64,000 nucleotides of DNA from NCBI RefSeq assembly GCF_014200575.1, contig NZ_JACHBZ010000002.1, positions 682,001 to 746,000 of the forward strand, written 5' to 3'. The position numbers and the translations under genes are program-made. This stretch comes from Mucilaginibacter saanensis. Lineage in GTDB: Bacteria > Bacteroidota > Bacteroidia > Sphingobacteriales > Sphingobacteriaceae. Below the pieces are notes generated by a model. That model searched no databases. It was not told the origin of the DNA and worked only from the letters and a program-made list of their open reading frames with translations. The stretch's first letter is position 1, and every line of letters begins with the position of its first letter. This document shows, piece after piece, positions 40,812-57,846 of the stretch.

Positions 40812-40826
40812 AACTAATTAGTATTA

Positions 40827-41489
40827 ATGTATAAAATCATCCAGATCATTCTTGATTGGTCGGAAGTATGGGCTTTATTAATACCCGCTCTAATCCTTAT
40901 CACAAAAAAACAACCGGCTATAAATAAGCCGGTTGTTTTATACGTTTGGATTGCACTGTTTATCAACATTGCAATTGATATGACCTGGAAGTTCAGAAAC
41001 TGGCTGCCCGGTGATCATAACTCCAACAATTATCTTTATAATCTGCATTCCATAGTCCGGTTTTTCTTACTCAGTGCCTTTTTTATCCAGCTTAAACAGC
41101 CATTTCTTGTACTATTGAAAAAGGCTGTGCTTGTATTTTTTATTCTGTTTGTAATTATAAACTTTTGTTTTTTTGAAGATTTTTTTGACTATTGGAAACT
41201 GAGCAGCCGTTTACTATCTGTTGAAGCAATTTTGCTATTATTTTATACGCTGCAATATTACCTGTTTAAAATAAATGAAAACGAGGACGTTGACATTGTT
41301 AGCAATGGTTTTTGGATAGTTACAGGATTGGGTATTTATGTTTCAATAAACTTTTTCATTTTTTTACTTTATAACGAACTGACTATGCGGCTGCAAAATT
41401 TTGCAATCAGCTTATGGAATGTTCACAATATCTCATACATCATTTTTAATTTGTTTTTAGCCAAAGATTTTTATGGGTCAGGGAAATAG
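40827..41489 (+). CDS. Seven-TM integral membrane protein next to a histidine kinase
   Basis: This 220-residue, very hydrophobic protein has about seven predicted TM segments: ALLIPALILI; VVLYVWIALFINIAIDM; IVRFFLLSAFFIQL; AVLVFFILFVIINFCFF; LLSVEAILLLFYTLQYYLF; FWIVTGLGIYVSINFFIFLL; and a last one before NLFLAKDFYGSGK. It has no catalytic motif. Its stop overlaps the kinase start by 17 bases, implying translational coupling. It probably acts as the membrane sensor for the kinase, which has one TM segment and little extracellular sequence of its own. Confidence 0.75.
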   Translation: MYKIIQIILDWSEVWALLIPALILITKKQPAINKPVVLYVWIALFINIAIDMTWKFRNWLPGDHNSNNYLYNLHSIVRFFLLSAFFIQLKQPFLVLLKKAVLVFFILFVIINFCFFEDFFDYWKLSSRLLSVEAILLLFYTLQYYLFKINENEDVDIVSNGFWIVTGLGIYVSINFFIFLLYNELTMRLQNFAISLWNVHNISYIIFNLFLAKDFYGSGK

Positions 41490-42270
41490 TGATATCAGGC
41501 TTTTACTTGTGGTTGGCGTTGCCGCCATGTTACTTCTTTTTGTGAGCTTTTTACTTGCTTTTATATTTACGCAACGCAAAAAACTTAATTATCAAAAATC
41601 CCTAAGACTCTTACAGGAAAGGCAGCAGAATCAGCTGATTGAAGCTGCGGTGAGGAGCGAGGAAACCGAACGGCACCGTATTGCCGAAGAACTGCATGAC
41701 GAGGTGGGGGCTTTGCTGGCATCCTCTAAATTGCATTTTAATAGCATCAAGATTAATAGTATTGATGATTATAACCAAGGCCTTTCAAACAAAGGGAAGG
41801 AGTTATTGGATGCAGCAATTAATAAAGTACGCGGCATTTCTCATAACCTGCACTCCAGTATATTACAGGAGTTCGGTTTAAATGAAGCCATCAAACATTT
41901 TACCGCAAGCATCGGCCATGAAGCGGTTATGATGGTTACAACTACGCTTGATGAAAGATATACCACAAAAGATCCGCAAAACGATATCAGTATTTACCGC
42001 ATTATTCAGGAGGTCATTAATAACACCATAAAACATGCCCACGCCAGCAATATCAATATCAAATCGGTATATGCCGATCAATTATTGAGGTTAACAATAT
42101 CACACAATGGCCAGGGACTTACACAACCATTGTTTGAGGAACTCCGGTACCAAAGTGCGGGGCTGGGGTTGAAAAATATACAAAACAGGGTTATCTTACT
42201 TCGCGGAAATCTTATATTTGGGCAAGATGCCTCCGGTTTTAACATTGATATTTACATTCCCAGAAACTGA
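41473..42270 (+). CDS. Sensor histidine kinase, NarX/LuxR-partner type (HisKA_3)
   Basis: This 265-residue kinase has one TM segment (about residues 9-32), a short coiled linker and the dimerisation/H-box HRIAEELHDEVGALL with phospho-acceptor His75. The HATPase_c domain has N-box YRIIQEVINNTIKHAHAS and the G2 region GLGLKNIQNRVILLRG. The G1 box reads SHNGQGL, so the usual Asp of DNGxG is His; from memory such variants occur in Bacteroidota kinases of this type. It overlaps the 7-TM gene and is 5 bp from the response regulator, its evident partner. Confidence 0.92.
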   Translation: MGQGNSDIRLLLVVGVAAMLLLFVSFLLAFIFTQRKKLNYQKSLRLLQERQQNQLIEAAVRSEETERHRIAEELHDEVGALLASSKLHFNSIKINSIDDYNQGLSNKGKELLDAAINKVRGISHNLHSSILQEFGLNEAIKHFTASIGHEAVMMVTTTLDERYTTKDPQNDISIYRIIQEVINNTIKHAHASNINIKSVYADQLLRLTISHNGQGLTQPLFEELRYQSAGLGLKNIQNRVILLRGNLIFGQDASGFNIDIYIPRN

Positions 42271-42275
42271 TTGAA

Positions 42276-42926
42276 ATGACACAAAAAATAAGAATTGCCA
42301 TTGCCGATGATTCTACGATTTTTAGAGATGGACTAAAAGTTTGTTTAAATCAGGACGATAATCTGGAAGTAGTACTTGAGGCCGGAAACGGAGCAGAATT
42401 GCTGGAAGGTCTTCAAAAAAATATAGCCGATGTTATCCTGATGGATTTAAAGATGCCCGTAATGGATGGGATGGAGGCAACCAGGGAAGTAAAAAAGAAA
42501 TACAAGGATATAAAGGTTATTGCAGTAACCATGTATGGCGATGACAACTTTGTGATACATTTAATGGAAAATGGCGCAAACGGATATCTGCTCAAAAATG
42601 CTGATCCGCCTGAGATTGGAAAAGCTATTCATGCCGTACACCAAAACGGATATTATTTTAATGATATTGTGAGTACAGCACTGCTGAAAAAGCTGGTAAT
42701 AAAAGGCAATGTAAAGCCATCATTTAATACAAATATTGAATTTTCTGAACGCGAACTGGAGGTTTTGAATCTAATTTGTAATGAAAAAACTACCGTTGAA
42801 ATAGGTAAAGAAATATTTTTAAGTCCGCGTTCTGTCGAAGGCATCCGTCAACGGCTTATTGAAAAAATAGGCGTCCGTAATACTGCGGGGCTGGTTATGT
42901 TTGCCGTTAAAAACGGGATAATATAA
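42276..42926 (+). CDS. Response regulator, NarL/LuxR family
   Basis: The receiver domain has acidic pair Asp11/Asp12, phospho-acceptor Asp57 in LMDLKMP, the conserved Thr in IAVTMYGDD and the Lys in GYLLKNADP. The C-terminal LuxR-type helix-turn-helix runs from FSERELEVLNLICNEKTTVE to LSPRSVEGIRQRLIEKIG. At 216 residues it is of normal length. It lies 5 bp after the kinase. Possible targets include its own operon and the gene run starting 412 bp downstream at 43339; neither can be shown here. Confidence 0.95.
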   Translation: MTQKIRIAIADDSTIFRDGLKVCLNQDDNLEVVLEAGNGAELLEGLQKNIADVILMDLKMPVMDGMEATREVKKKYKDIKVIAVTMYGDDNFVIHLMENGANGYLLKNADPPEIGKAIHAVHQNGYYFNDIVSTALLKKLVIKGNVKPSFNTNIEFSERELEVLNLICNEKTTVEIGKEIFLSPRSVEGIRQRLIEKIGVRNTAGLVMFAVKNGII

Positions 42927-43338: not shown

Positions 43339-46300
43339 ATGTATCAACAACTTCATTTTGATTTCAACCATTTTGGAAATTCGGCTAATAATGCCTTGTT
43401 TTTAAAAGTAAGGGGCGAAAAATTCCCCCTTCGTGCGCACACACAGGAAACCTTGCAGGCATCAGGCAGGGTTAATAAAGCCGTGTCGGTTTTATTAAGT
43501 CATAATCCCAATGCTTTAACCCATTTTGTTGATGTGCCGCAAGCACACATCCTTAAAAATTGCCTTACCAGGATACAAGTAGTAGGCCACGCCGATGAAA
43601 GCGATCCCAATAATTATCTGCCCCCGCTTTATCATGTGTCATATATGACGCACATCGACGACTATAAATCATATTTTGTTAAACTGAAAAAGAAAATTGG
43701 TAAAGTACAACCAAGGCTTTATCATGCTTATGGATTAGATGCCGTAGCTACTGATGATCCATGGGAAATACTGGTTCATGAATATGGCTTAAATGGCCCT
43801 GTTCAAATTGCCAAATACCTTGCAGGCCAGCATCCCATGACCATGAGTAATAAGCCTCAAACTCACCTTGCCATGGAGAACGAACATATTTACCCTGTAA
43901 ATGGCTCTGGGCCTGATAGTATCACTCAATGTAATAATATCGTATTCCTTGCCCAGCAAATAAAAATTCAGGGAGAACCTGGGGTAAATTCAGGCTTTGC
44001 CAGGATAAAGCAAGCAGTTGATGGCAATAAGCAGCCAATGATCTATGAGTTTAACGTTGGCCCCCGCAGTACCGGTGATGCCGTATTAATATATGACCTT
44101 ACCGATATAACCAACAATGCAATGGCTCCTGCAACAGCGTTGCCTGTACAAACCTCCAGGAACGATTCGCAATTTCAAAACCAAACCTGGTCGGTAAATC
44201 AGGGCGAGGCATCAAAAGATGTGGCCAATCAAAACGTTTCACAACAGTTCAGCAAATTTTCCCTATCCACCAAGCTTGGTGCAGCGGCATCACCATGGGC
44301 GGTATCTCCTAATACCTCAACACATGGTATTACTGTTGATCAGGGTTCAATCAATTTTGATCCAACCAGTAATACTTTTTCTGTTGATGCATATAATAAC
44401 TTTCTGCGTATTGTAGGTGCATATGTCCAATTTTTTGCGGATACGGATATGAAAACGCCTATTGATAACCCGATGAATCCTAAGATGCTTGAGAAGTTTC
44501 AAACATCAGATAAAACTTATATATCCATGATTACCAGTGTTAACACTATCATGGGTATACCAATGCCTACTGATCCGGTTAACTTAAAGGTGCAATGGCC
44601 TGATAAGGCCCAGGCTGCAAAGCTGATGTTTGGAGGTGCCGGTACCTGGAATTATGATGCACATACCGTTTGGCCCGGTTTTATAGAAACCGGAATATTT
44701 TGCTTTGGTGTGCCGCTTTTCATGATGGCTTTGTCAACAGCGGTTACTGACACGCAATGGTATAAGGATTTTGTAGATGATACCGACAATATTATGGCCG
44801 CAGTTGGTGTGGGCTCAGGTGTTGGCGGCGGAGCGCTTGCTGTTGACATAGCAGAGGTGCAGGGGCTCAAAGGCTCGCTGTTTACCTTTGGCGACATTAT
44901 AGCCGGTATCCTGGTAAAAAAGGGAATGGAAGCCTTAACCACCAAAATTATGGCTAAAGTGGCGGCATCGCAGATAGCGGAGGCTGCACCATTTGTTGGT
45001 TGGGTATTACGCGCATTAAGTATAGCGCTTGATGTTGCCGAGATGGCCGTGTCATTAGGCGAGGTATTATCATCGCCCGCAGTAATTGAAGTGGATATTA
45101 AACGTCAGATGCCGTTAACCTTTACGCTTCATCCTGATCCTGCACATGGCGAAGCCGGAAAGCCAGCAACCGCTATATGGCCGGCTGTTGCAGATCATTA
45201 CCGTATCATGGTGAATTATAAAAATGGCACAGGTTTCGAAGCTAAAGGGAACGTTCCGTTAACCCAATCAGGCGGCTCCTCCAATACGCCGGTTAGTGTA
45301 GATTTTACCGTTCCATGGGGCGGGCAAATGCAAATCATTGCTGCTGTTTACTCAAAAAATGGCTGGCTATGCGGCAAATACCAAAGTGATTGGTTAGATG
45401 CTATACCCGACACCAGTCAACCAGGTAAAACAGTAAACGGCAATATTACCGAGTTGCTGGTACCGCTTACTGTGGATACACAATATAATTTCATGCAAAA
45501 AATTGCCTACAACGCACAGCAGCAACACTACTGGTGGGGCAAAAGCAAGGGCGCTACTGCACCTGCTGATACCGTTAGCAGTTTAAACCCCGGTAACGTG
45601 GGACATAATCTTGCCCAGTTATCAGGTATAACTATTAATGAAACCGCATACGTTATTGGCTACACCTGGCAGGCTTCAGGCGAGAATATACCGCTGGAAG
45701 AAGGAGGGACGCCCGATTCGGGACAGATGTTTGTTTTCCAGAACCAATCGGTTTTAAGTGATCCGCAAAGCCGTAATAAGTTTCCTGATTATGGCTTTAA
45801 AACCAAACCCGGACTGGCTTATGACATATATGGCGGCAGCCCAAAAGAAGTAGGGCCTTTAAATTTTGTTATCGATACCCGGAATGCATCTACAGGCTAT
45901 TTACGTTTGGTTGATCTGATGAACGGTTCGTCGAAATTTAATCTGGACAGTGGCCTGAGTTACGGAACTTTCACGCTTGGTGATATTGACGCTGTGGCTG
46001 TACATCCTAACGGTTATATCGTGGCAACCAACTGGGCAAGTCACCGCATGCAGATTCTGAGGTTGCCTGAGCAAGCCGTTCCGGATGCTTCTGCTCCGGC
46101 AGCAGCGCTTGTTGCGGGTAAAGGTGTGGAACAAGGACTACTGTTAGGTCCTATTGCGCTCGCCATTTCCCCGGATGGCAAAATTTATGTTCTGGAATCA
46201 CTGAATAATAGGGTGCAGGCCTTTGATATTGTGGGTAACCCGGCTCCGAGTTTTAAGGGAGAAGCTTTATTTACAGTGGCAAATGGTACAACCTTAGCCG

Positions 46301-47313
46301 CGCAATTGGATCAGAAATTAGTTCCTGATAACCTGATTACCGCATTCCTTACAAACAGAGCAACTGATCTTTTCTACATAAACCCTGCATTAAGCAGTGT
46401 GCTTGATGCAGGCGTAATGACTATGGATGTCATCAATGCGTTTGCTGATAATATGATTTACCTGGCTTACCAAACAGATAATGGAAAAATCATACCCGAC
46501 CCAACGCAAACCTCCTACATTACAGTAGCTAAAGCAGGCAGCAACTGGACTATAACCGATCCAAGCCGTAAATATGTATATGCGCTTAGCCTTACTCCAG
46601 GCGGCATACTGGTTCAGGATCAGTTTACCTTTACCGAGATCATCATTTTGCAAAAAGGTGCATCATGGCAGTTAAAGGATCTGGCAGGTGGCAAATCCTA
46701 TTTATTAACCTTAAATGGTAATAATATTGATGTTGCCCAGTACCTCTCATACTTCTCTGTAAATCCGCAGGATGAGGAACTAAATTACTGCGATATTGCC
46801 ATCGAAAGCAAGGGGTATGTATATGTGCTTGCTTATTCCGGCGATCCAAAATCAGGCAGTATCCCCAACACGGCTTATGTTATGGATGTATATACCCCGC
46901 AGGGCGAGCATCTGTTCAGAACTCCGGATTCAAAATTAACGCCTGCCGCCGAGATGGAATACATTGCTGCCGGTAAAATAACGGTAGATCTGTGGCGCAA
47001 TCTTTTTGCACTCAACTATGAGAAAATCTCAGGCCCATCAGCCCGTACAGAACCATCTGTGAGCCAATGGATACCAAGCCCTCCATTGTTTGATATTGAT
47101 TTAACGGCAGCCAATATAGCTATGTTTAATAACGCCAACATGCCGCAGATTACAGCAGCTTTTGCAGCTTCCGGTAATACTTTATCATCAACTGCTACCT
47201 GCACGGTAATACAGACAGGTCAGCATTGGAAGGTGAATGACCCTGGAAATTCAAAGAACTACGATGTGATCACTACTATAGGGAAGATCTATGTATACAG
47301 CGCACTGGTTTAA
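43339..47313 (+). CDS. Large mosaic protein of unknown function (1324 aa) with NHL-like and Trp-module repeats
   Basis: I do not recognise the whole protein. There is no signal peptide. Residues 1-440 look globular, with His-rich patches (HYPP-like, FDFNHFGNSANNALFLKVRG). Three hydrophobic or Gly-rich segments follow: about 444-470 (ETGIFCFGVPLFMMALSTAV), 485-508 (VGVGSGVGGGALAVD) and 548-580. About 590-692 resembles an Ig/Fn3-type beta-sandwich. About 874-972 has NHL-like propeller repeats (AISPDGKIYVLESLNNRVQA). A ~35-residue Trp module occurs three times (about 1059-1093, 1098-1133, 1287-1324) with pattern [VI]x[QK]xGxxWx[VIL]xD...Yx[VL]. The same module occurs twice in the pentapeptide protein at 49844, linking the two. 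It is the first gene of the PKS locus. Confidence 0.72.
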   Translation: MYQQLHFDFNHFGNSANNALFLKVRGEKFPLRAHTQETLQASGRVNKAVSVLLSHNPNALTHFVDVPQAHILKNCLTRIQVVGHADESDPNNYLPPLYHVSYMTHIDDYKSYFVKLKKKIGKVQPRLYHAYGLDAVATDDPWEILVHEYGLNGPVQIAKYLAGQHPMTMSNKPQTHLAMENEHIYPVNGSGPDSITQCNNIVFLAQQIKIQGEPGVNSGFARIKQAVDGNKQPMIYEFNVGPRSTGDAVLIYDLTDITNNAMAPATALPVQTSRNDSQFQNQTWSVNQGEASKDVANQNVSQQFSKFSLSTKLGAAASPWAVSPNTSTHGITVDQGSINFDPTSNTFSVDAYNNFLRIVGAYVQFFADTDMKTPIDNPMNPKMLEKFQTSDKTYISMITSVNTIMGIPMPTDPVNLKVQWPDKAQAAKLMFGGAGTWNYDAHTVWPGFIETGIFCFGVPLFMMALSTAVTDTQWYKDFVDDTDNIMAAVGVGSGVGGGALAVDIAEVQGLKGSLFTFGDIIAGILVKKGMEALTTKIMAKVAASQIAEAAPFVGWVLRALSIALDVAEMAVSLGEVLSSPAVIEVDIKRQMPLTFTLHPDPAHGEAGKPATAIWPAVADHYRIMVNYKNGTGFEAKGNVPLTQSGGSSNTPVSVDFTVPWGGQMQIIAAVYSKNGWLCGKYQSDWLDAIPDTSQPGKTVNGNITELLVPLTVDTQYNFMQKIAYNAQQQHYWWGKSKGATAPADTVSSLNPGNVGHNLAQLSGITINETAYVIGYTWQASGENIPLEEGGTPDSGQMFVFQNQSVLSDPQSRNKFPDYGFKTKPGLAYDIYGGSPKEVGPLNFVIDTRNASTGYLRLVDLMNGSSKFNLDSGLSYGTFTLGDIDAVAVHPNGYIVATNWASHRMQILRLPEQAVPDASAPAAALVAGKGVEQGLLLGPIALAISPDGKIYVLESLNNRVQAFDIVGNPAPSFKGEALFTVANGTTLAAQLDQKLVPDNLITAFLTNRATDLFYINPALSSVLDAGVMTMDVINAFADNMIYLAYQTDNGKIIPDPTQTSYITVAKAGSNWTITDPSRKYVYALSLTPGGILVQDQFTFTEIIILQKGASWQLKDLAGGKSYLLTLNGNNIDVAQYLSYFSVNPQDEELNYCDIAIESKGYVYVLAYSGDPKSGSIPNTAYVMDVYTPQGEHLFRTPDSKLTPAAEMEYIAAGKITVDLWRNLFALNYEKISGPSARTEPSVSQWIPSPPLFDIDLTAANIAMFNNANMPQITAAFAASGNTLSSTATCTVIQTGQHWKVNDPGNSKNYDVITTIGKIYVYSALV

Positions 47314-47367
47314 ATACAGGTAAACGCTCTCAACCATTTATTTCATTTTTTAAAACTTAACCACATC

Positions 47368-47790
47368 ATGGAAAAAAATAAGAGTGGAGGTAATCCGGCA
47401 AATGGCAGCTTTCAAAAAGCCGTTGCTTTGCTGGGCATATCTCCCGATAAAATTAGTAAGGAACAGCTGCACACGTCCGCTGCAGCAAAAGCTCTTTCAG
47501 ATGACGCGGGTAAATCGCTTATTAAACCGGTTAAAATAGTCTTTGAATCGTCAAAACACGGGGATGAATTTTGGGCCTTTGCCAACTCCGATAACACGGA
47601 TAAGCCTGCGGAAATAACAACGTTTACCGCAGATAACGTAGTGGTAACACCGAATGCGCCTTTAATAATAAAGCCATCAGGTAAGGAACCCGTGGTCGTA
47701 AATATTGATACACTGACCATGGAGCCGGGCGGACAAATACAATGCCTCACGAGTGTAATTCTGAACGTAACAACTTTTATCAAACAATAA
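47368..47790 (+). CDS. Unknown 140-aa protein, paralogous to the non-repeat domain of the 414-aa protein
   Basis: The N-terminus [13 protein letters not shown] matches [13 protein letters not shown] of the next gene. The C-terminal half [19 protein letters not shown]...[11 protein letters not shown] aligns with [19 protein letters not shown]...[11 protein letters not shown] there. It ends [12 protein letters not shown], and ILNVTTF recurs in the 230-aa glycine-rich protein. It is thus the same beta-rich domain without the Gly-rich tail. No signal peptide. It lies 54 bp after the 1324-aa gene. The function is unknown; it might cap or seed an assembly made by the longer paralogues. Confidence 0.7.
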
Positions 47791-47827
47791 TCACTTTTTC
47801 AATTCAAAACCTTTAAACAAAAATTTT

Positions 47828-49072
47828 ATGGCAAGCTCAGTTAATTTTCAAAAAGATGTGGAAACACTGTTAAAGATGGGGGTAAAAGGCGTCGATAAGC
47901 GCACCAGTTCATACAATACCAGCGATTTTCCGGGTGGCTTGATACTTTCTGCCGATGCGCAGAAGTCACATATTGCCCCAAGTTTTATTACGGTAAGCGA
48001 TGTTGATTCACTTAAAGACATCTGCGGCATACACAACAGTTTATTTACAGCAGGAAAGCTTGAAGACACACACCGTATTCCGCCGGTACGCCACGCGGCA
48101 AGCCAGGTAATAACCAATCCACAGGACCCGCATGTATGTGATGCACTTTTTGCTTATGTTTTTGGAAATAGCAGCACAGTGGAGTCATGGAAGGATACCA
48201 TAAACACCCTGCGTTTCCCAATGAAAGTAACGGTATTTGCGGCCAGCTCTATCGTTGTGCAGCCCCCAATACCATTATTCCTTCTCGGAACTGACGCTAA
48301 TCCAATTTCCCTGGTTTGTGATTCACTTACTATTGAAGCCGGGGGACAAGTAATTACAGAGGGCCCCGGAAAAGTGAGTGCCGATGTTATGCGGGGAAGC
48401 GACGTTTCGGCTTTACTTACCGATAACCCTGCACCTAACTTATTATCTGTAGGCGGTAATGGCGGCAGCGGTGGTAATGGTGGTGCTGGTAGCACCGGAG
48501 GTGCCGGATCAGCCGGGGCAAATGCAAGCGAAAGCGGAAAAAGCGGCTGTAATGAAGCCGGAACCGGTGGTGTAGGCAGTATAGGCGGCAATGGCACTGC
48601 GGGTGGTACCGGCGGACTTGGCGGTAACGCTAACGATATCAACTACTCTGTAACTACCTTGAACGGATCGTATGTGGTTGGTAGTATCGGCGGCAGCGGT
48701 GGCAATGGCGGTCCGGGCGGCAATGGCGGCAGCGGTGGTGCAGGCGGCCCTGGTGGTACCGGTTGCAGAAGTTGTGGTACTGGTTCAACCGGCGACGGTG
48801 GAAAAGGCGGCAATGGCGGCAACGGTGGTGCCGGCGGCAATGGTGGTAATGGATCAAAGGTATATATTAATTATACCTCGGGAAGTCCCGTTATTACCGT
48901 TTCAAACCAGCCTGCAAATGGCGGTAATGGTGGCAATGCCGGCAACGCAGGCGCAGGCGGTACAGGCGCAACCGCTGGTGGAACAGGTAATGCCGGAAGT
49001 TCTGGCAATGGCGGCAATGGTGGCCAGCCGGGACAGGTTATCGTCAATGGCGCTACATCAGTGCATAAATAA
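47828..49072 (+). CDS. Glycine-rich GGN-repeat protein with N-terminal beta domain (414 aa)
   Basis: Residues 1-200 form a non-repetitive domain related to the 140-aa protein; from about 205 to 405 the sequence is GGNGG/GGAGG/GGSGG repeats. Two strand-like spacers break the repeat: one near [20 protein letters not shown], the other [20 protein letters not shown]. Cys occurs only in SGCNEAG and CRSCG within the repeat. There is no signal peptide. Gly-rich repeats of this kind can form polyglycine-II helix bundles, as in phage S16 tail adhesin and snow-flea antifreeze protein; that is inference here. Long proline-rich frames on the other strand are artefacts of the repeat. Confidence 0.75.
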
Positions 49073-49140
49073 TATCAAACCACTTGCAGTAGGTAACCTT
49101 GCTGCAAGTGGTTCATGTTTTTACAACCAATTAAAAATTA

Positions 49141-49833
49141 ATGATCATGGCAACACAACCAGATATAGTAATTAATGGCAACCCGGGAGCTGCCGGCACT
49201 ATTGGAGTTAATGCTCCTAATGCCATACCGGCCACAGGTACAAATGGCGCCGATGGGTATAAAAAAGGCGGTAAGTACATACCTGCAACTAATGGCGCTA
49301 ACGGCGCAAATGCATCAACTAGTGGTACAAACGGTGCTAACGCAGCTATCGGCGGTAATGCTGGTAGCTTTATTTTAAATGTAACTACGTTCACCTTATC
49401 AAGCCCCCTATCAGTTCAAAGCTTTGGCGGCAATGGAGGGGCTGGTGGCAATGGCGGCAACGGTGGCAACGGTGGAACCGGCGGCAATGCAGGTCTTAAT
49501 AATGCCAGTCATCAGTCAAATCCTGCCATTGGTGGTATTGGCGGCAACGGAAGTAACGGTGGTAATGCCGGTGCAGCTGGTAATGGAGGTAATGGCGGCT
49601 CTGTTAATGTGATTTACCACACGGCTAACATCAATAATCCTGTATCACCAGCCTCAACAGGAGGTAACGGCGGTGCCACCGGTAATGGCGGTAATGGCGG
49701 CCAGGGTGGTAACGGCGGCCGCAATGAAAAAACGGGTTTTCAGCCATTTGGTAATCCGGGCAGCAACGGAAATAACGGTGCTCCGGGTACAGGCGGGCAG
49801 GGCAGTAATAACATTAGTGTTTCAAAAATTTAA
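49141..49833 (+). CDS. Glycine-rich repeat protein (230 aa)
   Basis: It opens with a collagen-like NGANGANA/TNGANG section (about residues 10-75). The strand-like spacer SFILNVTTFTLSSPLSVQSF shares ILNVTTF with the 140-aa protein. GGNGG blocks follow, broken by SVNVIYHTANINNPVSPAST, a spacer placed like the one in the 414-aa protein. The start may be 49141 or the in-frame ATG at 49147 (MATQPDIV); neither has a clear ribosome site. It lacks the N-terminal domain of the 414-aa protein and a signal peptide. It ends 10 bp before the pentapeptide gene, so the two are probably coupled. Confidence 0.72.
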   Translation: MIMATQPDIVINGNPGAAGTIGVNAPNAIPATGTNGADGYKKGGKYIPATNGANGANASTSGTNGANAAIGGNAGSFILNVTTFTLSSPLSVQSFGGNGGAGGNGGNGGNGGTGGNAGLNNASHQSNPAIGGIGGNGSNGGNAGAAGNGGNGGSVNVIYHTANINNPVSPASTGGNGGATGNGGNGGQGGNGGRNEKTGFQPFGNPGSNGNNGAPGTGGQGSNNISVSKI

Positions 49834-49843
49834 ACAAGCAGCT

Positions 49844-52135
49844 ATGTCAACCTTCAACTCCAATACAGCCGACTTTGCGGGCAAATGGTCGTTTTCCACA
49901 CCTGATAACAGCCTGCTTATATCACTTTCAAGCGTTAGCCCCGGTACAGCGCTGGTAGCGGCAACGGGCGATCATTATAAACCGGCGGCAAATCAACAAT
50001 TTAATCTATATGGCGATGTAAAATCGGGCTTTGTACTGCAAGCGCCTAATTGGTTGTACATATATTTTAATAACGGTTACCAGGCAACAAAATCACGGGG
50101 CGATGCAGCATGCTCTGTATTCGCTGTTCAAACAGCCGGGCCGGGTACAGTTTGTATTGTTGAAACATCAGGAGGGGCCGACTATTACGTTGTGGTTGAT
50201 AGCTCAAATAATTTAAACCGGATAATTAAACAAGGTACAGCACCAGCAAATGCCCAGTTTAATCAAAACAAGGTAACCGATGGGATTGCCGATATACGCA
50301 AGCAAAAAAGCACACTCGCCAATCCGCTAACAGGGGTTTACCTGGCCGGGCAGGATTTAACCAATATCGCTTTCATGGCAACGGATGTTTCCTATGCAAA
50401 CCTTGCCCACACCCGGTTAGATAATACATCCAATTTTAATGGCGCAACTGCCAGTAGCACTATATTTGATCAGGCAAACATGCAAAACTGGGTAGCTAAT
50501 GGCCTGGTTTTTAAGAATTGCTCGTTTGTTAATGCTAATATGAGCTTTGTAAAAATGGCCTCATCAAAGCTGGTTAGCTGTACGCTAAACAAAGTGAATT
50601 TTGCAAACGCAATTCTGCAGGATGCTGACTTTACCAGTGCATCCATGGTAAACAGCAGTTTTTACAACGCCAAGGTAAACGGAGCCACGTTTAAAAGTGC
50701 CATTTTAATTAATGCTGACTTAAGCGGAGCCATAGGTGTTGAGGCCATTATAAGTATTGAAAGTGCTATTCTTATTGCAGCAGATGTAAGCGGCCACGAT
50801 CTCACTAAGGTATTGATCAATGAGGATACCAATTTTATGAATGCTACGCTTGATAACTGCAACTTTACCGGGCGCAATTTAACCAATGTTGTATTTGCCC
50901 GGGCCTCGATGCAAAAGGTTAAGCTGGACAGAGCGATATTGAACGGGGCTCAGATGGCCTTTGCCGATCTTTTTTCAGCAAGTGTAACAGGTGCAGTTTC
51001 CATGATCGGGGCCAACCTGTCAAATGCAAACCTGGCAGGTGCCCAGTTCCCGGGCGCACAACTGGGGGCAAAACAAATCCTGTTCCAGTTGCCGCTTAGT
51101 GATGGTGCCATACTTGATAAGTCACAGATCCCAGCCGATTTGAAGGTAGATCTGAAATTGTCTGACCAGGCAACCGTAAGTGTTATACAGCCGGGTTTAA
51201 TGTGGCAGGTAACGGATATTTCCAAAGTATACCAGGTAAACAACACGGGCACCAATTTACTGGTTCAGGTTGTTAGCGCTACAAGTAATGCCGCTATATT
51301 ATCAAATGCTTATATGTTTCAAACCAATTTTCAGCAGGCAAACCTTTATGCCGTCGAAATGTCAGGAGTACATTGGTATGGTAGTGGAGCCAGCGCGTTG
51401 AGTGCTGATCTGGGTATAGCAAATCTGTCAAACTCGTTTCTTGCAAACATGAATTTTGAACAATCATTAATGCAGGGAGCTTCGTTAGATTATGCTACCC
51501 TGATAGGTACTATTTTCGATGGCGCAAATTTAAATCCCACCGAAAGTATGAAGCCTACCTCATTTGCTTTTGCATCTATGCAAAGCACATCCTTTAACGG
51601 GGCATCTAACTTAAATTATGCCAATTTAACCAATGCAGCCATATCACTAAAAAACGGAGTGCCTTTATTTACCATCGCCTCCACTTTTTCCACTACGCTT
51701 AACAGTGGGATAGTATCGGCCCTTTTGCTGGCTACTTTTAATGATATGGCCTATTCGCTTATTAATACTGCCAAAATTACTGTTCTGATAAAAGGCTCAA
51801 ACTGGACTATCAGGAACATGGACGCCTTAGATGCTACACAAACCGGTTATGGAACATTTTACCTGGAGCTGATTAATCAGGAAAACGGAATGGTATTTAT
51901 ACAAGTATATGGAGCATCGCCATTGCTGATACTGAACTCTGACGGCAAAGGCGGACAAATCCAGATCCCTTTATCATTTGGCCCATCGGCAATTACACGA
52001 AAGCAAATGAATGACAGTACAACCTGCCCATCAGGTATGAAGCTGTATTACCTGTCAGATTACCTGAGCTATGAAGAACTGATGACACCCGCATTGCCAC
52101 CAAAACCACCAACCTGTTTGGATTGCTGGGGATAG
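49844..52135 (+). CDS. Pentapeptide-repeat protein with Trp modules (763 aa)
   Basis: The ATG at 49844 (MSTFNSNTADFAGKW) is chosen; a longer frame would read through the glycine-rich gene in the wrong phase. Residues 1-150 are beta-rich and resemble a trefoil-like lectin fold (uncertain). From about 150 to 430 and again about 485-630 there are A[DN]Lxx-type pentapeptides such as LSNANLAGAQFPGAQLGA, giving a right-handed quadrilateral beta-helix. Two Trp modules lie near 443-480 (VIQPGLMWQVTD) and 643-692 (VLIKGSNWTIRN), the same as in the 1324-aa protein. The end has PTCLDCW. There is no signal peptide. The PKS gene follows after 54 bp. Confidence 0.82.
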   Translation: MSTFNSNTADFAGKWSFSTPDNSLLISLSSVSPGTALVAATGDHYKPAANQQFNLYGDVKSGFVLQAPNWLYIYFNNGYQATKSRGDAACSVFAVQTAGPGTVCIVETSGGADYYVVVDSSNNLNRIIKQGTAPANAQFNQNKVTDGIADIRKQKSTLANPLTGVYLAGQDLTNIAFMATDVSYANLAHTRLDNTSNFNGATASSTIFDQANMQNWVANGLVFKNCSFVNANMSFVKMASSKLVSCTLNKVNFANAILQDADFTSASMVNSSFYNAKVNGATFKSAILINADLSGAIGVEAIISIESAILIAADVSGHDLTKVLINEDTNFMNATLDNCNFTGRNLTNVVFARASMQKVKLDRAILNGAQMAFADLFSASVTGAVSMIGANLSNANLAGAQFPGAQLGAKQILFQLPLSDGAILDKSQIPADLKVDLKLSDQATVSVIQPGLMWQVTDISKVYQVNNTGTNLLVQVVSATSNAAILSNAYMFQTNFQQANLYAVEMSGVHWYGSGASALSADLGIANLSNSFLANMNFEQSLMQGASLDYATLIGTIFDGANLNPTESMKPTSFAFASMQSTSFNGASNLNYANLTNAAISLKNGVPLFTIASTFSTTLNSGIVSALLLATFNDMAYSLINTAKITVLIKGSNWTIRNMDALDATQTGYGTFYLELINQENGMVFIQVYGASPLLILNSDGKGGQIQIPLSFGPSAITRKQMNDSTTCPSGMKLYYLSDYLSYEELMTPALPPKPPTCLDCWG

Positions 52136-52189
52136 CAAATATGCCGTGTAGGAGTTAAAATATTATCTAACCTGTAATAACCCTGTTTT

Positions 52190-55100
52190 ATGATACAAGA
52201 AAATACATATAGTCCTATAGCTATAGTTGGTATGGGCTGCCGGTTTCCGGGTGGTACAAACACGCCTGAGCAATATTGGAAATTATTAATGAGCGGTTTG
52301 GATGCCATTGAAGATATCCCTCAAGATCGCTGGAGCCAGGATTACTTTTATTCTGACGACCGCGCCCAGCCCGGTTCGCTTATATCCCAACAGGGTGGGT
52401 TTATTAAGGATGTAGCCGGTTTTGACAACAGCTTTTTTGGCTTTTCAAATCTCGAAGCAGCCAATATGGATCCGCAGCAACGGCAGTTATTACAAGTATC
52501 ATGGGAAGCCATGGAGCAGGGGCAAATTCCTTGTGATCAATGGGCCGGAAAACAGGTTGGTGTTTTTATGGGCTGCTTTAGTGTTGATTATCACCTGATG
52601 CAGTTTACCGACCCTATGGAAATGGGTGCTTTTGCCGCAACAGGGATCATGAATACCATGCTCTCCAACAGGATATCGTATGCCTTTGATTTTAAAGGCC
52701 CTTCCATGTCTATTGATACTGCCTGCTCTGCCTCGTTAACAGCGGTGCATCAGGCTTGTTGCAGTTTACAAAACGGCGAGTCTGAGATGGCCTTAGCGGG
52801 GGGCTCTATGCTGATGCTGATACCAGATTATCACATAGCCGAAACCAAAACAGGTATCTTATCAAAGGATGCGCGGTGCAAATCCTTTTCGGCAGCAGCC
52901 AACGGGTATGTACGCAGCGAAGGTATCGGTGTTGTTGTTTTAAAACGCCTGGAGGATGCATTAGCTGCCGGCGATCATATACTGGGGACAATTATAGGGA
53001 GTTCAGTTAACCAGGACGGCCGTACCAATGGCATTACATTACCCAATCCTGAATCGCAAATGGCCGTGATGCGCAATGCCTGTAAATGGGCAGGCATAAA
53101 CCCGGGCGATGTTAGCTATGTAGAAGCTCACGGGACTGGAACTTTTTCCGGTGATCCTATCGAGGCCAAAGCCATTGGCACCGTATTTTGCCTGGAGGTA
53201 GAGCGTGAAAAAACGTTATGGATTGGTTCATGCAAGAGTAATATTGGTCATACAGAGTCAGCTTCGGGGGTGGCAGGGCTTATCAAAACCGTTTTGTGTT
53301 TACAGCATAAACAAATACCGCCCAACCTGCATATCGAAAAATTAAATCCGGCTATCCCATTTGATCATTTGCGGCTTAAAATTCCGCTTGCCCCTGAAAA
53401 TTTGGAAACAGGAGATCAGCCTTTAATTGCAGGTGTAAACTCCTTTGGTTTTGGTGGTTCAAACGCACACGTACTTGTAAGGGAATACCAGATTGCAGAA
53501 ATACCAGTGGAGCAGCGCCCTGATGTATGTGATTCATTTCTGTTACCCTTATCTGCCCAGTCCGAAAAGGCCCTTAAAACCATGGCACTTGATTATGCAG
53601 AAACAGCTAAAAAACTTAATAGTTATTCCACTGCCGACTTGTGTTATAACGCAGCTAACCGGCGTTCGCAGCTCTCCAAGCGCAAGGTATTCCTGGCAAA
53701 AAACAAAGAGGGCTTAATAGATCAGCTGCTTCGGTTTGGTAACGAGCCTGTTGCGGGCTGGCCGCTGCAATCGGGTATAAAACGGATAACCTGGGTATTC
53801 CCGGGTATTGGCCGGTTATTTTATGGCATCAGCAATGGGTTAATACAAAATGAGCCTGTTTTCCGTGAAATGTATGCGCAATGTGATAGGTTGTATGCTG
53901 CGCTTTGTGGGTTTTCCCTCTTAAAGGTTTTGCAGCAGTCATCGCCTGATGATACCATCACAGATCCTGCTATATCGCAGCCCGCCCAATTTTTCCACCA
54001 GGTAAGTCTGGCTGCGCTTTGGCGCGCCCGGGGAATAAAGCCTCATACTATTGTTGGATATAGCGCCGGCGAACTTGCTGCCTTTTATGAGGCCGGTGCC
54101 TATACACTTGATGAATGCCTGGAGTTTATCTTTATGCGTATTAAACTTCTTATAAAACTACAGGGAACCGGGGCAATGCTGGCTGTAAATGCAAGCGAGG
54201 CTGTTATAACCCCTTTGCTGCAGCCTTACTCGGGCGAGGTAGTGATAGCCGCGTATAACAGTGCGGTGCATCTTACCTTATCTGGTAATAAGGCAGCCAT
54301 AACCGCCATTATGCAGGATCTGGAACAGGCAAATATTACCTGTAGTTTATTGTGGGAAGAGATAGCCTATCACCATACCAAACTATTGGATGATGCTGAT
54401 TTAAGTACGCAGCATTATGTCGCTGTTCCTCAGGTACGTAAACCGCAGATATTGTTGTATTCTACCGCAACAGCGGGGCTAATTACCCCGGAAACCTTTT
54501 TACCAGACCATTGGGTAAAAAATATAAGCGAGCCTGTTTATTTCAAACAGGTAATTGATAAAATAATGGCCGCAGGGGCATGTCATTTTATGGAATTGTC
54601 TGGTAAACCGATGCTTATCCCATATTTGTATACCATTACCGGCACTCAAAAAGCCGCTATATTAAATCCGCTGTCTGTTTTGCCGGGGATACCGGAAGAT
54701 CGGCAGATACTCGCTAAAATATTCGAAGCCGGGTATCATGTCAACTGGTCTACGGTATATCCAAAGGGTAACCGGATGGAATTGCCATTATATTCATGGC
54801 AAAATGAAAAACTATGGCAGGAGCCCGAGAAAAGTAAAAGACGCAGATTAAGACCCGCAGAACACAGTTTACTTGGTTCATTAACAGATGGCCAGGACAA
54901 CCAATGGGAAACTATTTTTTCCGTAGAAAAAATGCCCTGGCTGCTTGACCACAACATCATGGGCGATTGTCTGCTGCCAGGTGCAACCTATATTGATATG
55001 GCTTTAGCGGCACTGCATCAAAAAGCAGGTAAAGGCCGATCTTTTGTTATTGAAGACCTGCGTTTTATAAAGGCAGTCCGGATACCAAAAAAAGCGGTAT

Positions 55101-57406
55101 TTTTTGTGCGTTTTTCTTTGGATGAACAAGCCCGCAGTTTCAGCATTTCCGTAACAAAATCATTATGGCCAAAGGAGTTTGAAGAGGTTGCCAAAGGCCG
55201 TTTTCGTCAGTTGCCACCGGGTGGTATAGCCAATATTAACCCTCAACAGCATATTGAAAAATATGAACCCTTTATTGCAGGGAGTGATATGTACCAGTTT
55301 TTTAATAGTATTTATTATAAGTATGGGCCCGCATTTCAGGGTTTGGAACGGGTTTACAAAAACGAAAATGAAGCATTTTGCGAAATAACTGTACCACAAG
55401 AGTATTGTACAGATAATTACCGGTATCACCCCGCAGCGCTTGATATTGCGTTTCATGCAATGTTAACCCTGAAACATAAAAAAGGACAGAACGATGCCGG
55501 CTTTGAAATACCCGAAGGTATTGACCAAATAAGGATTTTTAAACAACCAGAACCCAAAATGCTGGTGCATGCCCGGTTGACGGAAACAACGGAATCAGGT
55601 AGCAAAACCGATCTTTACCTGTATAATGTATCAGGCGACCCCATAGGGGTAATATCGGGGTTCAGAACCAGTAGCTTAAACGCGGGCAGTAAAAAACAGC
55701 TTGGCGCTATACAGTCGCCGCAATCTTTAGTTATCCCTGGCTGGGAGGAGTTTGCGATGGAAACATCGGCAGCCACCAATAATAAACAATTTGTTATTTT
55801 ATCTGACAAGCACCCCATTGCCGAAAAATTAGCGTTATCCCTGCAAATGGCCGGGCACAAGGTAACATCAGCCAACTCTGCATTTTTTGGTATTGATGAC
55901 GAGGATATCGTAATCAACGAGTTGAGTAATTTATTAAGCAGCTTAGACCCGGAAACAGAAATAATCAATTGCCTCTCCTTGGGTGCGAATAGCTTTGACG
56001 GCAGCATATTGTACGTGATTAAACCGCTTATATACCTGGCAAAAACTATCAAGCAAACAGGCTTTACCGGTAAATTATGGTCAGTGTCGCAGCAATCACA
56101 GCAGGTAGAGGGTTTTTTACATGATGTTAATGTTTTTCAGGCTGCGCTTTGGGGTATAAACAACGTGTTCGGGCATCAGGAATTTAGGGATAACTATAAA
56201 GGAATAATTGATGTAAATGGTATAGAAGATGTGAATACCCTGACTTATATTTTATCTGCCGCTTCTTTACCCGAAAACCAAATAGCTATAAGAGGTGGAA
56301 GTGCTTTTTGTAAACGGCTTAATCCTTATCCCGTTACAACCGCGGAAGCGGCCCTCGTTTCATTTGATGCACAGGCAACTTATTTAATAACCGGTGCATT
56401 TGGCGCCATAGGTAAGGAGGTAACGCAATGGATGTTACGTACCGGAGCGCGTAATTTACTATTAACAACCAGCAGGGACCTCAATGCTGATGCGGTATGG
56501 CTGCAAACACTTAGGGAGCAGGGAGCCAAAATAGAAGTGATACAGGTTGATTTTACTAACCCAAAGTCAATTGTTAAGCTCAGGAGCGAGGTAGTTGACA
56601 GAAAAGTAAAAGGCCTTATTTATTGCGCCGGTATCAGCGATGATCAATTGCTTGAAAGAATTGACGATGCCACGTTAAGGAAAGTTCTAAGTGCTAAAAT
56701 TCAGGGCGCTTATAACCTTCATGAGGCCCTTTCAGATGTACCGCTGGAGCATTTTGTTTTATTTTCATCAGTGGGTAGCTTATTGCCAAACCGCGGCCTG
56801 GGTAGTTATGCTGCTGCCAATGCTGCTTTGGATGCACTGGCGCAGAAAAGAAAGTTTATGGGCTTGCCCGCCTTAAGCATCAACTGGGGGCCCTGGTCAA
56901 TCGGGATGTTTCAGAAAACAGACTTTGAACGTGTGTTTTCCTTAATGGGTATTAACAGCTTAAGTGCTGAGCAGGGTATCAGGTTCCTGGAATCTGTTTT
57001 TTACTCAAACCAGGTGCAGGTGCTTATACAGCTTGCCGATTGGCCCAAACTTTTATCCTCATCACTGGCCGATAATAATCTATTTTCAAATTATCAGCAT
57101 TTGCTAAAAGGTGACGCATCTGTAAACAAAGCTATGCCTGATATTAATACGGTAGAGGGAGATATGATTACTGAATTATCCGTATTACTCAATATGCAGG
57201 GATCTGAAATTGAACTGGATAAATCCATAGCTGATTATGACATGGAATCTATTTCAGTTATGGTGCTCAGTGATATTATTGATAAACAATGGGGGGTTGC
57301 TATCTCGGTAGATGAACTGTGGCGCATCAATAGCTTTGCCGATCTGATTGCAAAAATAACGATAGCAATATCTGGCCGTTACCGCGAAAATCAGTTGGTT
57401 AATTGA
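52190..57406 (+). CDS. Type I polyketide synthase, single module KS-AT-DH-KR-ACP
   Basis: The 1738 residues form one reducing module. KS (about 8-430) has Cys179 in DTACSAS, His314 in EAHGTGT and His354 in KSNIGH, so it looks active. AT (about 530-870) has Ser625 in GYSAGE and a likely His in AYHHTK (728/729). It departs from the family in having Tyr before the Ser (usually GHS) and FPGIGR instead of FPGQG. DH has His921 in HNIMGDCLLP and Asp1085 in HPAALDIAF. KR has the nucleotide site TGAFGAIG near 1397 and catalytic Ser1527/Tyr1540. ACP has Ser1687 in DMESIS. No ER or thioesterase is present. It probably acts iteratively or passes its acyl chain to another enzyme. Confidence 0.93.
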   Translation: MIQENTYSPIAIVGMGCRFPGGTNTPEQYWKLLMSGLDAIEDIPQDRWSQDYFYSDDRAQPGSLISQQGGFIKDVAGFDNSFFGFSNLEAANMDPQQRQLLQVSWEAMEQGQIPCDQWAGKQVGVFMGCFSVDYHLMQFTDPMEMGAFAATGIMNTMLSNRISYAFDFKGPSMSIDTACSASLTAVHQACCSLQNGESEMALAGGSMLMLIPDYHIAETKTGILSKDARCKSFSAAANGYVRSEGIGVVVLKRLEDALAAGDHILGTIIGSSVNQDGRTNGITLPNPESQMAVMRNACKWAGINPGDVSYVEAHGTGTFSGDPIEAKAIGTVFCLEVEREKTLWIGSCKSNIGHTESASGVAGLIKTVLCLQHKQIPPNLHIEKLNPAIPFDHLRLKIPLAPENLETGDQPLIAGVNSFGFGGSNAHVLVREYQIAEIPVEQRPDVCDSFLLPLSAQSEKALKTMALDYAETAKKLNSYSTADLCYNAANRRSQLSKRKVFLAKNKEGLIDQLLRFGNEPVAGWPLQSGIKRITWVFPGIGRLFYGISNGLIQNEPVFREMYAQCDRLYAALCGFSLLKVLQQSSPDDTITDPAISQPAQFFHQVSLAALWRARGIKPHTIVGYSAGELAAFYEAGAYTLDECLEFIFMRIKLLIKLQGTGAMLAVNASEAVITPLLQPYSGEVVIAAYNSAVHLTLSGNKAAITAIMQDLEQANITCSLLWEEIAYHHTKLLDDADLSTQHYVAVPQVRKPQILLYSTATAGLITPETFLPDHWVKNISEPVYFKQVIDKIMAAGACHFMELSGKPMLIPYLYTITGTQKAAILNPLSVLPGIPEDRQILAKIFEAGYHVNWSTVYPKGNRMELPLYSWQNEKLWQEPEKSKRRRLRPAEHSLLGSLTDGQDNQWETIFSVEKMPWLLDHNIMGDCLLPGATYIDMALAALHQKAGKGRSFVIEDLRFIKAVRIPKKAVFFVRFSLDEQARSFSISVTKSLWPKEFEEVAKGRFRQLPPGGIANINPQQHIEKYEPFIAGSDMYQFFNSIYYKYGPAFQGLERVYKNENEAFCEITVPQEYCTDNYRYHPAALDIAFHAMLTLKHKKGQNDAGFEIPEGIDQIRIFKQPEPKMLVHARLTETTESGSKTDLYLYNVSGDPIGVISGFRTSSLNAGSKKQLGAIQSPQSLVIPGWEEFAMETSAATNNKQFVILSDKHPIAEKLALSLQMAGHKVTSANSAFFGIDDEDIVINELSNLLSSLDPETEIINCLSLGANSFDGSILYVIKPLIYLAKTIKQTGFTGKLWSVSQQSQQVEGFLHDVNVFQAALWGINNVFGHQEFRDNYKGIIDVNGIEDVNTLTYILSAASLPENQIAIRGGSAFCKRLNPYPVTTAEAALVSFDAQATYLITGAFGAIGKEVTQWMLRTGARNLLLTTSRDLNADAVWLQTLREQGAKIEVIQVDFTNPKSIVKLRSEVVDRKVKGLIYCAGISDDQLLERIDDATLRKVLSAKIQGAYNLHEALSDVPLEHFVLFSSVGSLLPNRGLGSYAAANAALDALAQKRKFMGLPALSINWGPWSIGMFQKTDFERVFSLMGINSLSAEQGIRFLESVFYSNQVQVLIQLADWPKLLSSSLADNNLFSNYQHLLKGDASVNKAMPDINTVEGDMITELSVLLNMQGSEIELDKSIADYDMESISVMVLSDIIDKQWGVAISVDELWRINSFADLIAKITIAISGRYRENQLVN

Positions 57407-57489
57407 GGTATATCCGGGTAAAAATAAAGAACAATTCTACAGTTGCTTTGTACTATAAACATAGATGTTTAACAATTAAGTAAAAAGCT

Positions 57490-57846
57490 ATGACCCGTAC
57501 AGTAAGCTACAGCATAAAAAAGGATACAGGCTCAATAATAAATATCATTATTGAGCCTGTATTAACTCAATCAGACCACGGTACATTGAGTTTTACCGGC
57601 GTTTATACGCTTTATAAAGACACTGATAAAAAAGATAAAGACTTGCTGGATATTCAGGAAATTGCTCCTGAAATTGGAGAAAGTAAGCCTTTGCTTGACG
57701 ATAAAAATAACCCTGATTTCGCAGGGCAGTTAACACTTAATACTGCAGGTTCTGAATGGATCTATACCAGCGGCGATAAAGGCGTGGTATTATCAGTAAA
57801 TGAACAAAAGCAGATCATCGCTTTTATTGAGACCGATCATCAATAA
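57490..57846 (+). CDS. Unknown 118-aa protein downstream of the PKS
   Basis: I do not recognise this protein. It begins MTRTVSYSIKKDTGSIINII and is beta-rich with an acidic, Lys-rich centre (YKDTDKKDKDLLDIQEIAPE). The end AGSEWIYTSGDKGVVLSV distantly resembles the Trp module of the 1324-aa and pentapeptide proteins (GSxW, then hydrophobic strands). If real, that would tie it to the same system, but the match is weak. No signal peptide or membrane segment. It lies 83 bp after the PKS on the same strand and is the last plausible member of the run. Confidence 0.65.
   Translation: MTRTVSYSIKKDTGSIINIIIEPVLTQSDHGTLSFTGVYTLYKDTDKKDKDLLDIQEIAPEIGESKPLLDDKNNPDFAGQLTLNTAGSEWIYTSGDKGVVLSVNEQKQIIAFIETDHQ

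What the first reader, a model, noticed from the sequence alone, without database searches (positions are those of the whole stretch)
43339..57846. Undescribed locus: PKS module encoded with glycine-rich, pentapeptide and mosaic repeat proteins
Seven consecutive same-strand genes with gaps of 10-83 bp combine a complete reducing PKS module with four structural or repeat proteins and two small unknowns. Domain sharing among the non-PKS members (Trp module; 140/414 paralogy; ILNVTTF segment) shows they evolved together. I know of no described system with this composition. Possibilities include a lipid- or polyketide-decorated protein assembly, a contractile or fibre-like particle, or a self-protected toxin pathway in which the pentapeptide protein gives immunity.
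Basis: partly seen in the sequence, partly recalled or inferred. Interest (0 to 1): 0.82.

Follow-up and report, generated by a model that had tools for sequence, protein, structure and literature searches.

The report
Undescribed cross-phylum polyketide and repeat-protein cassette
A six-gene cassette that joins one polyketide-making enzyme to a set of unusual repeat proteins keeps its order between a Bacteroidota-like bacterium and insect-killing Photorhabdus and Xenorhabdus, which suggests a real, undescribed system that may build a protein assembly around a fatty polyketide.

Summary
Genes A-F (43339-57406) recur in the same order and strand in 13 of 13 Photorhabdus/Xenorhabdus records found (proteins 37-42% identical to X. 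bovienii), and in Pseudovibrio; another genome (G1055) has A-C-C-C-E-F. Gene G was not found there.

The PKS (KS-AT-DH-KR-ACP) forms one clade with the gammaproteobacterial cassette PKSs (100/100). Pseudovibrio keeps A-E but has a different PKS of the same architecture (AU p 0.0005). G640 has the protein suite rearranged beside a larger PKS. All 17 C-containing loci read have a PKS in the same gene string. A plus pentapeptide E also occur without a nearby PKS in three genomes; in one a BPI/LBP-like lipid-binding protein lies between them.

Best explanation (0.35): A and E form a scaffold for a hydrophobic chain made by F, with C and D as a Gly-rich coat. Pentapeptide immunity and a contractile particle are poorly supported. 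Ten paper searches showed no description of the suite; a 2023 paper lists what is probably the Xenorhabdus PKS as an orphan cluster. Structure prediction never ran, so function is inferred.

The parts
43339..47313 (+). Gene A, 1324 aa: N-terminal part of unknown fold, hydrophobic stretch (about 444-577), one NHL repeat (936-962), three Trp modules; family otherwise unknown
   Evidence: 42% identical to Xenorhabdus A
47368..47790 (+). Gene B, 140 aa: paralogue of part of the C N-terminal domain; fused to the end of A in 12 of 13 Photorhabdus/Xenorhabdus records
47828..49072 (+). Gene C, 414 aa: about 200-aa N-terminal domain plus GGN/GGX-repeat half; 3-6 copies in the six Photorhabdus genomes searched
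49078..49113 (+). 16-pair inverted repeat between C and D; possible attenuator or mRNA processing site
   Evidence: function not tested; not seen by eye in the short C-D gaps printed for L024, L026 and L033
49141..49833 (+). Gene D, 230 aa Gly-rich protein; start resembles other D proteins by eye (DIxIxGxxG)
49844..52135 (+). Gene E, 763 aa pentapeptide-repeat protein with a non-pentapeptide N-terminus (beta-trefoil only a weak lead) and two Trp modules
52190..57406 (+). Gene F, 1738 aa type I PKS, KS-AT-DH-KR-ACP, no ER, no thioesterase
57490..57846 (+). Gene G, 118 aa, no family; membership in the system not supported
40317..42926 (+). Neighbouring unit U1-U2-histidine kinase-LuxR-type response regulator; present in genus relatives without the cassette, possible regulator only

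Best explanation
A mobile operon makes a proteinaceous assembly that carries or stores a hydrophobic polyketide chain. F builds a reduced or partly unsaturated chain on its ACP. Having no thioesterase, it hands the chain to the assembly instead of releasing a free acid. A (hydrophobic stretch, NHL propeller, Trp modules) and E (pentapeptide beta-helix) form the scaffold that contacts the chain. C and D, with GGN/GGX repeats that I expect to pack as polyglycine-II-like bundles, form the rigid coat; the extra C copies in Photorhabdus diversify or thicken it. Shown: gene order, homology, shared modules, one clade for window and gammaproteobacterial F, a different PKS beside A-E in Pseudovibrio, and the A+E core without a nearby PKS. 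Inferred: physical assembly, chain hand-over, coat function, cell location, mobility.
For: Same A-(B)-C-D-E-F order across phyla. F clade 99/98 (KS) and 100/100 (KS-AT). In Pseudovibrio A lies in the cassette clade (97/89) while its PKS does not (AU p 0.0005), yet its PKS pieces show KS, AT, DH, KR and ACP: the pairing with such a PKS outlived a change of gene. G640 has C-N-terminal-type, Gly-rich, E-, A-, A'- and C-type genes beside an AMP-ligase plus multi-KS PKS, with a phosphopantetheinyl transferase nearby. 17 of 17 loci read with a C-type gene have a PKS in the same gene string. In G820, where no PKS was seen in about 50 kb read, a BPI/LBP/CETP-family protein lies between A and E (Pfam 31.6 bits, cut-off 23; LBP 9e-4, BPI 4e-3), pointing to lipid-like ligands. 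8 of 9 A proteins scanned have hydrophobic stretches in the middle region. F lacks a thioesterase.
Against: No structure could be predicted. No interaction, product or location is known. By eye, none of the A-E starts read in PKS-linked loci looks like an export signal, and no secretion gene was noticed. G033, G369 and G820 have A+E without a nearby PKS, so the core does not need one. The BPI-like protein was seen in one genome only, with weak PDB hits. A missing thioesterase also fits a PKS that works with enzymes encoded elsewhere. One of the 9 A proteins scanned (second copy in G640) lacks the hydrophobic stretch. The A-trained Trp model misses Photorhabdus/Xenorhabdus E. G1055 lacks D.
Confidence: 0.35

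Rival explanations
1. F makes a diffusible bioactive metabolite and A-E are its export, presentation or stabilising proteins at the cell surface.
For: Type I PKS in insect-associated symbionts; PMC10676414 (section 8 read) reports an orphan KS-AT-DH-KR cluster in X. stockiae with a five-module NRPS in the same region; the X. stockiae cassette here has an NRPS about 13 kb upstream. In G640 oxygenases, a dehydrogenase and a phosphopantetheinyl transferase lie nearby.
Against: No transporter or releasing enzyme shared by the flanks that I read by eye (six genomes); no NRPS noticed by eye in the other flanks read; A+E occur without a nearby PKS.
Confidence: 0.22
2. A is a membrane-active effector (hydrophobic helices plus propeller) that acts on animal or microbial targets; F supplies a lipid modification or a co-acting compound; C/D/E form the carrier.
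For: Hydrophobic stretches in 8 of 9 A proteins scanned; found in seven Photorhabdus and five Xenorhabdus species; a divergent A homologue has a twin-arginine/lipobox-like start (motif reading recalled).
Against: No toxin family matches A; also found in a Bacteroidota-like genome with no known host link; no acyltransferase noticed nearby.
Confidence: 0.15
3. Pentapeptide protein E gives immunity to the polyketide (for example by protecting gyrase), as in other natural-product clusters.
For: Pentapeptide proteins are resistance genes in some pathways, e.g. speirobactin (start of the abstract of PMC12406682 seen). PMC10676414 mentions an unnamed self-resistance gene.
Against: E scores 41.4 against a Qnr cut-off of 240 and 33.7 against an MfpA cut-off of 360; it carries Trp modules and a non-pentapeptide N-terminus; pentapeptide proteins sit with A and no nearby PKS in three genomes.
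Confidence: 0.06
4. Contractile or fibre-like phage-derived particle.
For: Gly-rich triplet repeats occur in some phage fibre tips (recalled).
Against: No PHROG match for A-D (the matches of E are families without known function); no A homologue in phage records or found in viral contigs (pattern-based); no tube, sheath or baseplate gene noticed in the loci read.
Confidence: 0.03
5. Chance neighbourhood: PKS and repeat proteins merely adjacent.
For: A+E occur without a nearby PKS in G033, G369 and G820.
Against: The same order is kept at about 40% protein identity across phyla, and the F tree gives one clade for window and gammaproteobacterial cassettes.
Confidence: 0.02

Closest known systems
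Orphan 't1pks-1' cluster of Xenorhabdus stockiae (PMC10676414; listing, passages and section 8 read; 't1pks-2' in Photorhabdus akhurstii/hainanensis)
   Same: KS-AT-DH-KR PKS, same species as locus L032, an NRPS in the same region; very probably this F (not proven: no sequence comparison made)
   Different: The section names only a 'self-resistant gene'; 'pentapeptide' and 'repeat' have no occurrence in its main text
Heterocyst glycolipid PKS (HglE) with pentapeptide protein HglK (recalled)
   Same: PKS-made lipid plus a pentapeptide protein needed for its placement
   Different: HglK is a membrane protein; no Gly-rich or A-type proteins known to me; homology not tested
Pentapeptide immunity proteins in antibiotic clusters (speirobactin, PMC12406682, listing with start of abstract only)
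   Same: Pentapeptide gene in a natural-product operon
   Different: E is far below Qnr/MfpA cut-offs and belongs to an A+E core also found without a nearby PKS
PE_PGRS proteins of mycobacteria / polyglycine-II proteins (recalled)
   Same: GGN/GGX triplet repeats
   Different: C and D have no Pfam or NCBIfam match; fold not predicted here

Membership tests
Type I modular PKS | KS, AT and ACP in one chain with catalytic motifs | tested here: met
Type I modular PKS | chain-releasing domain (TE/TD) in the chain or a release gene in the cassette | tested here: not met
   none in F or in A-E, G and the DinB gene by Pfam; the rest of the window was not scanned for one
Cassette A-F (this work) | A-(B)-C-D-E-F on one strand in this order | tested here: met
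   13 of 13 Photorhabdus/Xenorhabdus records, Pseudovibrio (A, E, F frames split; D by start and Gly content) and the window; extra C gene(s) between E and F in 3 of the 13; G1055 lacks D; G640 is rearranged
Qnr/MfpA gyrase-protecting pentapeptide proteins | score above the curated NCBIfam cut-off | tested here: not met
NHL beta-propeller proteins | NHL repeats | tested here: met
   one repeat over cut-off in window A, 4 of 20 family members match at E 0.1; family profile hits TRIM71/Thin NHL regions
Polyglycine-II bundle proteins | PGII fold | not testable with these tools
   structure machine busy at every attempt; only GGX periodicity seen
Collagen-like proteins | long GXY triplet repeats forming a triple helix | tested here: inconclusive
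   GXX runs of 5-10 triplets; weak collagen matches for the C profile, E 0.003-0.008, among other weak hits
Phage or contractile particle | phage structural homologues | tested here: not met
Anti-phage defence system | PADLOC model match | tested here: not met
   (A-E and G; F not scanned)

The most novel reading that the evidence does not exclude
A horizontally spread 'polyketide-protein particle': a dedicated PKS builds a lipid-like chain directly into a self-assembling shell of beta-propeller, beta-helix and glycine-lattice proteins, a biosynthetic nanostructure unlike known secretion, vesicle or natural-product systems.
Probability: 0.22. Interest if true: 0.92.

Novelty: categorically new. 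Interest (0 to 1): 0.7.

Why it matters
The unit is kept between distant phyla, so it probably does something useful, yet A matches only NHL repeats and B, C and D match no Pfam family. If the polyketide is handed to a protein assembly, it would be a new way of pairing an assembly-line enzyme with structural proteins. The cassette is present in Xenorhabdus and Photorhabdus species, so the question is directly testable by gene removal. 'Categorically new' refers to composition; if A-E prove to be ordinary export proteins it drops to a new variant of a PKS gene cluster.

Tried and rejected
A search with the single window A protein found no genome contigs locus; the two-row profile found 13. Phage records gave no match and a pattern-based scan of viral contigs none. 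PADLOC and PHROGs gave no system. Recent foreign origin is not marked by codon thirds: GC3 of A-F 0.37-0.43 against 0.395 +/- 0.035 in 25 other ORFs; total GC of A-F is higher (0.43-0.52) than upstream (0.39) or downstream (0.415), in C and D at least in part through glycine codons. A search for a Bacteroidetes -7-like motif was below chance. Sigma-70-like promoter matches were fewer than in shuffles, so no promoter is claimed. The upstream kinase-regulator unit looked like a cassette regulator, but the kinase has a close relative in 8 of 40 relatives searched and A had no match in those 8; in the three read, different genes follow it.

The beta-trefoil idea for the E N-terminus rests on weak hits (designed trefoils E 0.3-1; best hit overall E 0.003 to a glycoside hydrolase entry), so it is only a lead. 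Searches for other cassettes were keyed on A; C or D genes far from any A would not have been seen, except in the 12 cassette genomes searched with C (P. heterorhabditis not held). There one C copy, in G180 on another contig, was not read in context. Metagenome contigs were not searched.
Full report
OBSERVATION. I call them A (1324 aa), B (140), C (414), D (230), E (763), F (1738) and G (118). Pfam gives one NHL repeat over its cut-off in A, pentapeptide repeats in E, a KS-AT-DH-KR-ACP polyketide synthase in F, and nothing in B, C, D or G. F keeps the KS, AT, DH, KR and ACP motifs and has no enoylreductase or thioesterase. C and D are 23% and 29% glycine with GGN/GGX triplet runs.

SHARED MODULES. 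The Trp module occurs three times in A and twice in E (those E copies were in the training set). A model trained on A copies alone ranks window E as its best non-A hit among 2168 ORFs (8e-5), followed by the E of genome G820 (1e-3), but it does not detect the E of Photorhabdus/Xenorhabdus (E 5 or worse). A model of the C N-terminus finds B (i-E 1e-11) and the C-terminal end of Photorhabdus/Xenorhabdus A, where B is fused. ILNVTTF is shared by window B and D, but Xenorhabdus D lacks it.

CONSERVATION. tblastn of A against 72,556 plasmid records gave one match, a Xenorhabdus bovienii megaplasmid: 40% identity over 99%. Around it lie A, C, D, a pentapeptide protein and a type I PKS in the same order. 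Identities to the window are 42% (A), 40% (C), 41% (D), 38% (E) and 37% (F). A profile scan of genome contigs found 13 loci: seven Photorhabdus, five Xenorhabdus and Pseudovibrio denitrificans. Of the 13 Photorhabdus/Xenorhabdus records (12 plus the plasmid; X. bovienii counted twice as two strains) all 13 have A, C, D, E and F in this order. F follows E directly in 10 of 13; in 3 of 13 (L027, L037, L038) C-type genes lie between E and F. Many loci end inside F; for L038 the rest of F was read in L048. B is fused to A in 12 of these 13 and is a separate ORF in X. innexi, Pseudovibrio and the window. Photorhabdus carries extra C copies (6, 3, 6, 5, 4 and 3 plus a broken one in the six genomes searched; the five Xenorhabdus genomes searched have one). 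In P. asymbiotica the six C proteins agree on average at 75% in the N-terminal part and 48% in the Gly-rich part. In the flanks read for six of these genomes I noticed no further shared gene beyond housekeeping genes in Photorhabdus (names recalled).

DISTRIBUTION. A matched 2 of 60 genomes (own and G033); 7 of 395 of the phylum (own, G369, and five that match only around the NHL repeat); 1 of 16 of the Pseudovibrio genus (itself); 4 of 149 of the P. asymbiotica family (G172, G181, G182, G640); 5 of 398 of the Pseudovibrio phylum (G177, G182, G820, G895, G1055); 3 of 119 of the G1055 family (G182, G640, G1055). It is rare and patchy; these samples overlap. G1055 has A-C-C-C-E-F without D. G640 has a C-N-terminal-type gene, two Gly-rich genes, E, A, A' and a C-type gene, then an AMP-ligase/multi-KS PKS, with a 2OG oxygenase over cut-off, a 3-hydroxyacyl-CoA dehydrogenase and a phosphopantetheinyl transferase nearby. 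G033 (A-E), G369 (A plus two pentapeptide proteins with signal-peptide-like starts, one of them Gly-rich) and G820 (A-X-E) have no PKS in the stretches read (19, 19 and about 50 kb); G033 has a PKS elsewhere. G895 ends in A and cannot be judged. Of the loci read that hold a C-type gene (window, 13 Photorhabdus/Xenorhabdus, Pseudovibrio, G1055, G640) 17 of 17 have a PKS in the same gene string; that is about five host lineages. One further C copy (G180, another contig) was not read.

HISTORY OF THE PKS. Among 1293 plasmid records with a match to F, the X. bovienii PKS ranks first by coverage times identity (35.9% over 99%, 927 bits); by summed bits of several pieces some other PKSs score as high or higher, e.g. 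Eleftheria 931 and Paenibacillus 1206, which is why I built trees. Among 398 genomes of the Pseudovibrio phylum, the two cassette genomes score 1037 and 995 bits, the next 760; the two best candidates per genome were scored and Pseudovibrio itself did not reach E 1e-150. Among 149 genus genomes the best other hit has 604 bits (three candidates per genome scored). The KS tree (62 rows) puts window F with 13 gammaproteobacterial cassette PKSs at 99/98; the KS-AT tree (53 rows) puts it with nine at 100/100, with Streptomyces, Eleftheria and Paenibacillus PKSs next. Pseudovibrio's PKS falls elsewhere and forcing it in is rejected (26-row tree, p 0.0005; the grouping was chosen after seeing the first tree, and its row is long and partial), although its A lies inside the A clade (97/89; the deep part of that tree has long branches). 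Its frames for A, E and PKS are split in the draft record; the PKS pieces give KS, AT, DH, KR and ACP. So one lineage seems to have exchanged the PKS gene while keeping the architecture and A-E. The trees cannot say which PKS is original.

FUNCTION. The PKS has no release domain and no conserved partner that I saw but A-E. 8 of 9 A proteins scanned have hydrophobic stretches in the middle region. In G820, between A and E, lies a protein of the BPI/LBP/CETP lipid-binding family (31.6 bits, cut-off 23; weak PDB hits to LBP and BPI). Two G369 pentapeptide proteins start like secreted proteins and the G895 A homologue starts like a Tat lipoprotein (my reading), whereas the starts that I read in PKS-linked loci do not. 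I therefore think that A and E form a scaffold for hydrophobic molecules, that C and D form a rigid coat, and that F supplies the molecule. This is inference; the structure machine was busy at every attempt.

LITERATURE. Ten searches showed no description of the suite; for only part of the hits was listed, and three papers were opened. PMC10676414 (listing, passages and section 8) reports an orphan KS-AT-DH-KR cluster in X. stockiae with an NRPS in the same region; it is probably the same F, since the X. stockiae cassette here has an NRPS about 13 kb upstream of A. PMC12406682 was seen only as a listing with the start of its abstract. Of PMC10715044 and PMC12377575 I saw listings and passages found by terms.

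LIMITS. The collections are samples, searches were keyed on A, and independent lineages are few. G is not supported as a member. The neighbouring kinase-regulator unit occurs in relatives without A and has variable genes after it.

Noticed in passing
window 40317-42926: Four-gene unit (two unknowns, histidine kinase, LuxR-type regulator). The kinase has a close relative in 8 of 40 relatives; in the three read (L120, L121, L122) the whole unit is present and a different gene set follows each time, so this looks like a variable site.
   Followed up: partly
window 49078-49113: 16-pair inverted repeat between C and D, terminator- or attenuator-like.
   Followed up: no
L033 4163-8028 (- strand): Near the Pseudovibrio cassette: nitrile-hydratase-alpha-like short protein (possible RiPP leader, recalled), radical SAM protein and tetrapyrrole-methylase-family protein (Pfam).
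   Followed up: partly
L070 11026-12810: BPI/LBP/CETP-family protein between A and E in a bacterial genome, with no PKS in the stretch read.
   Followed up: partly
L121 9509-12209: Three tandem genes with similar starts after the kinase-regulator unit in a genus-mate; the two tested are class 3 lipase family.
   Followed up: partly
L026, L029, L035 upstream of A: Arrays of C paralogues; in L026 the N-terminal halves are conserved and the Gly-rich halves divergent.
   Followed up: partly
L024 1703-3355: 551-aa protein without Pfam match directly upstream of the cassette in the two X. bovienii records (L024, L030).
   Followed up: no
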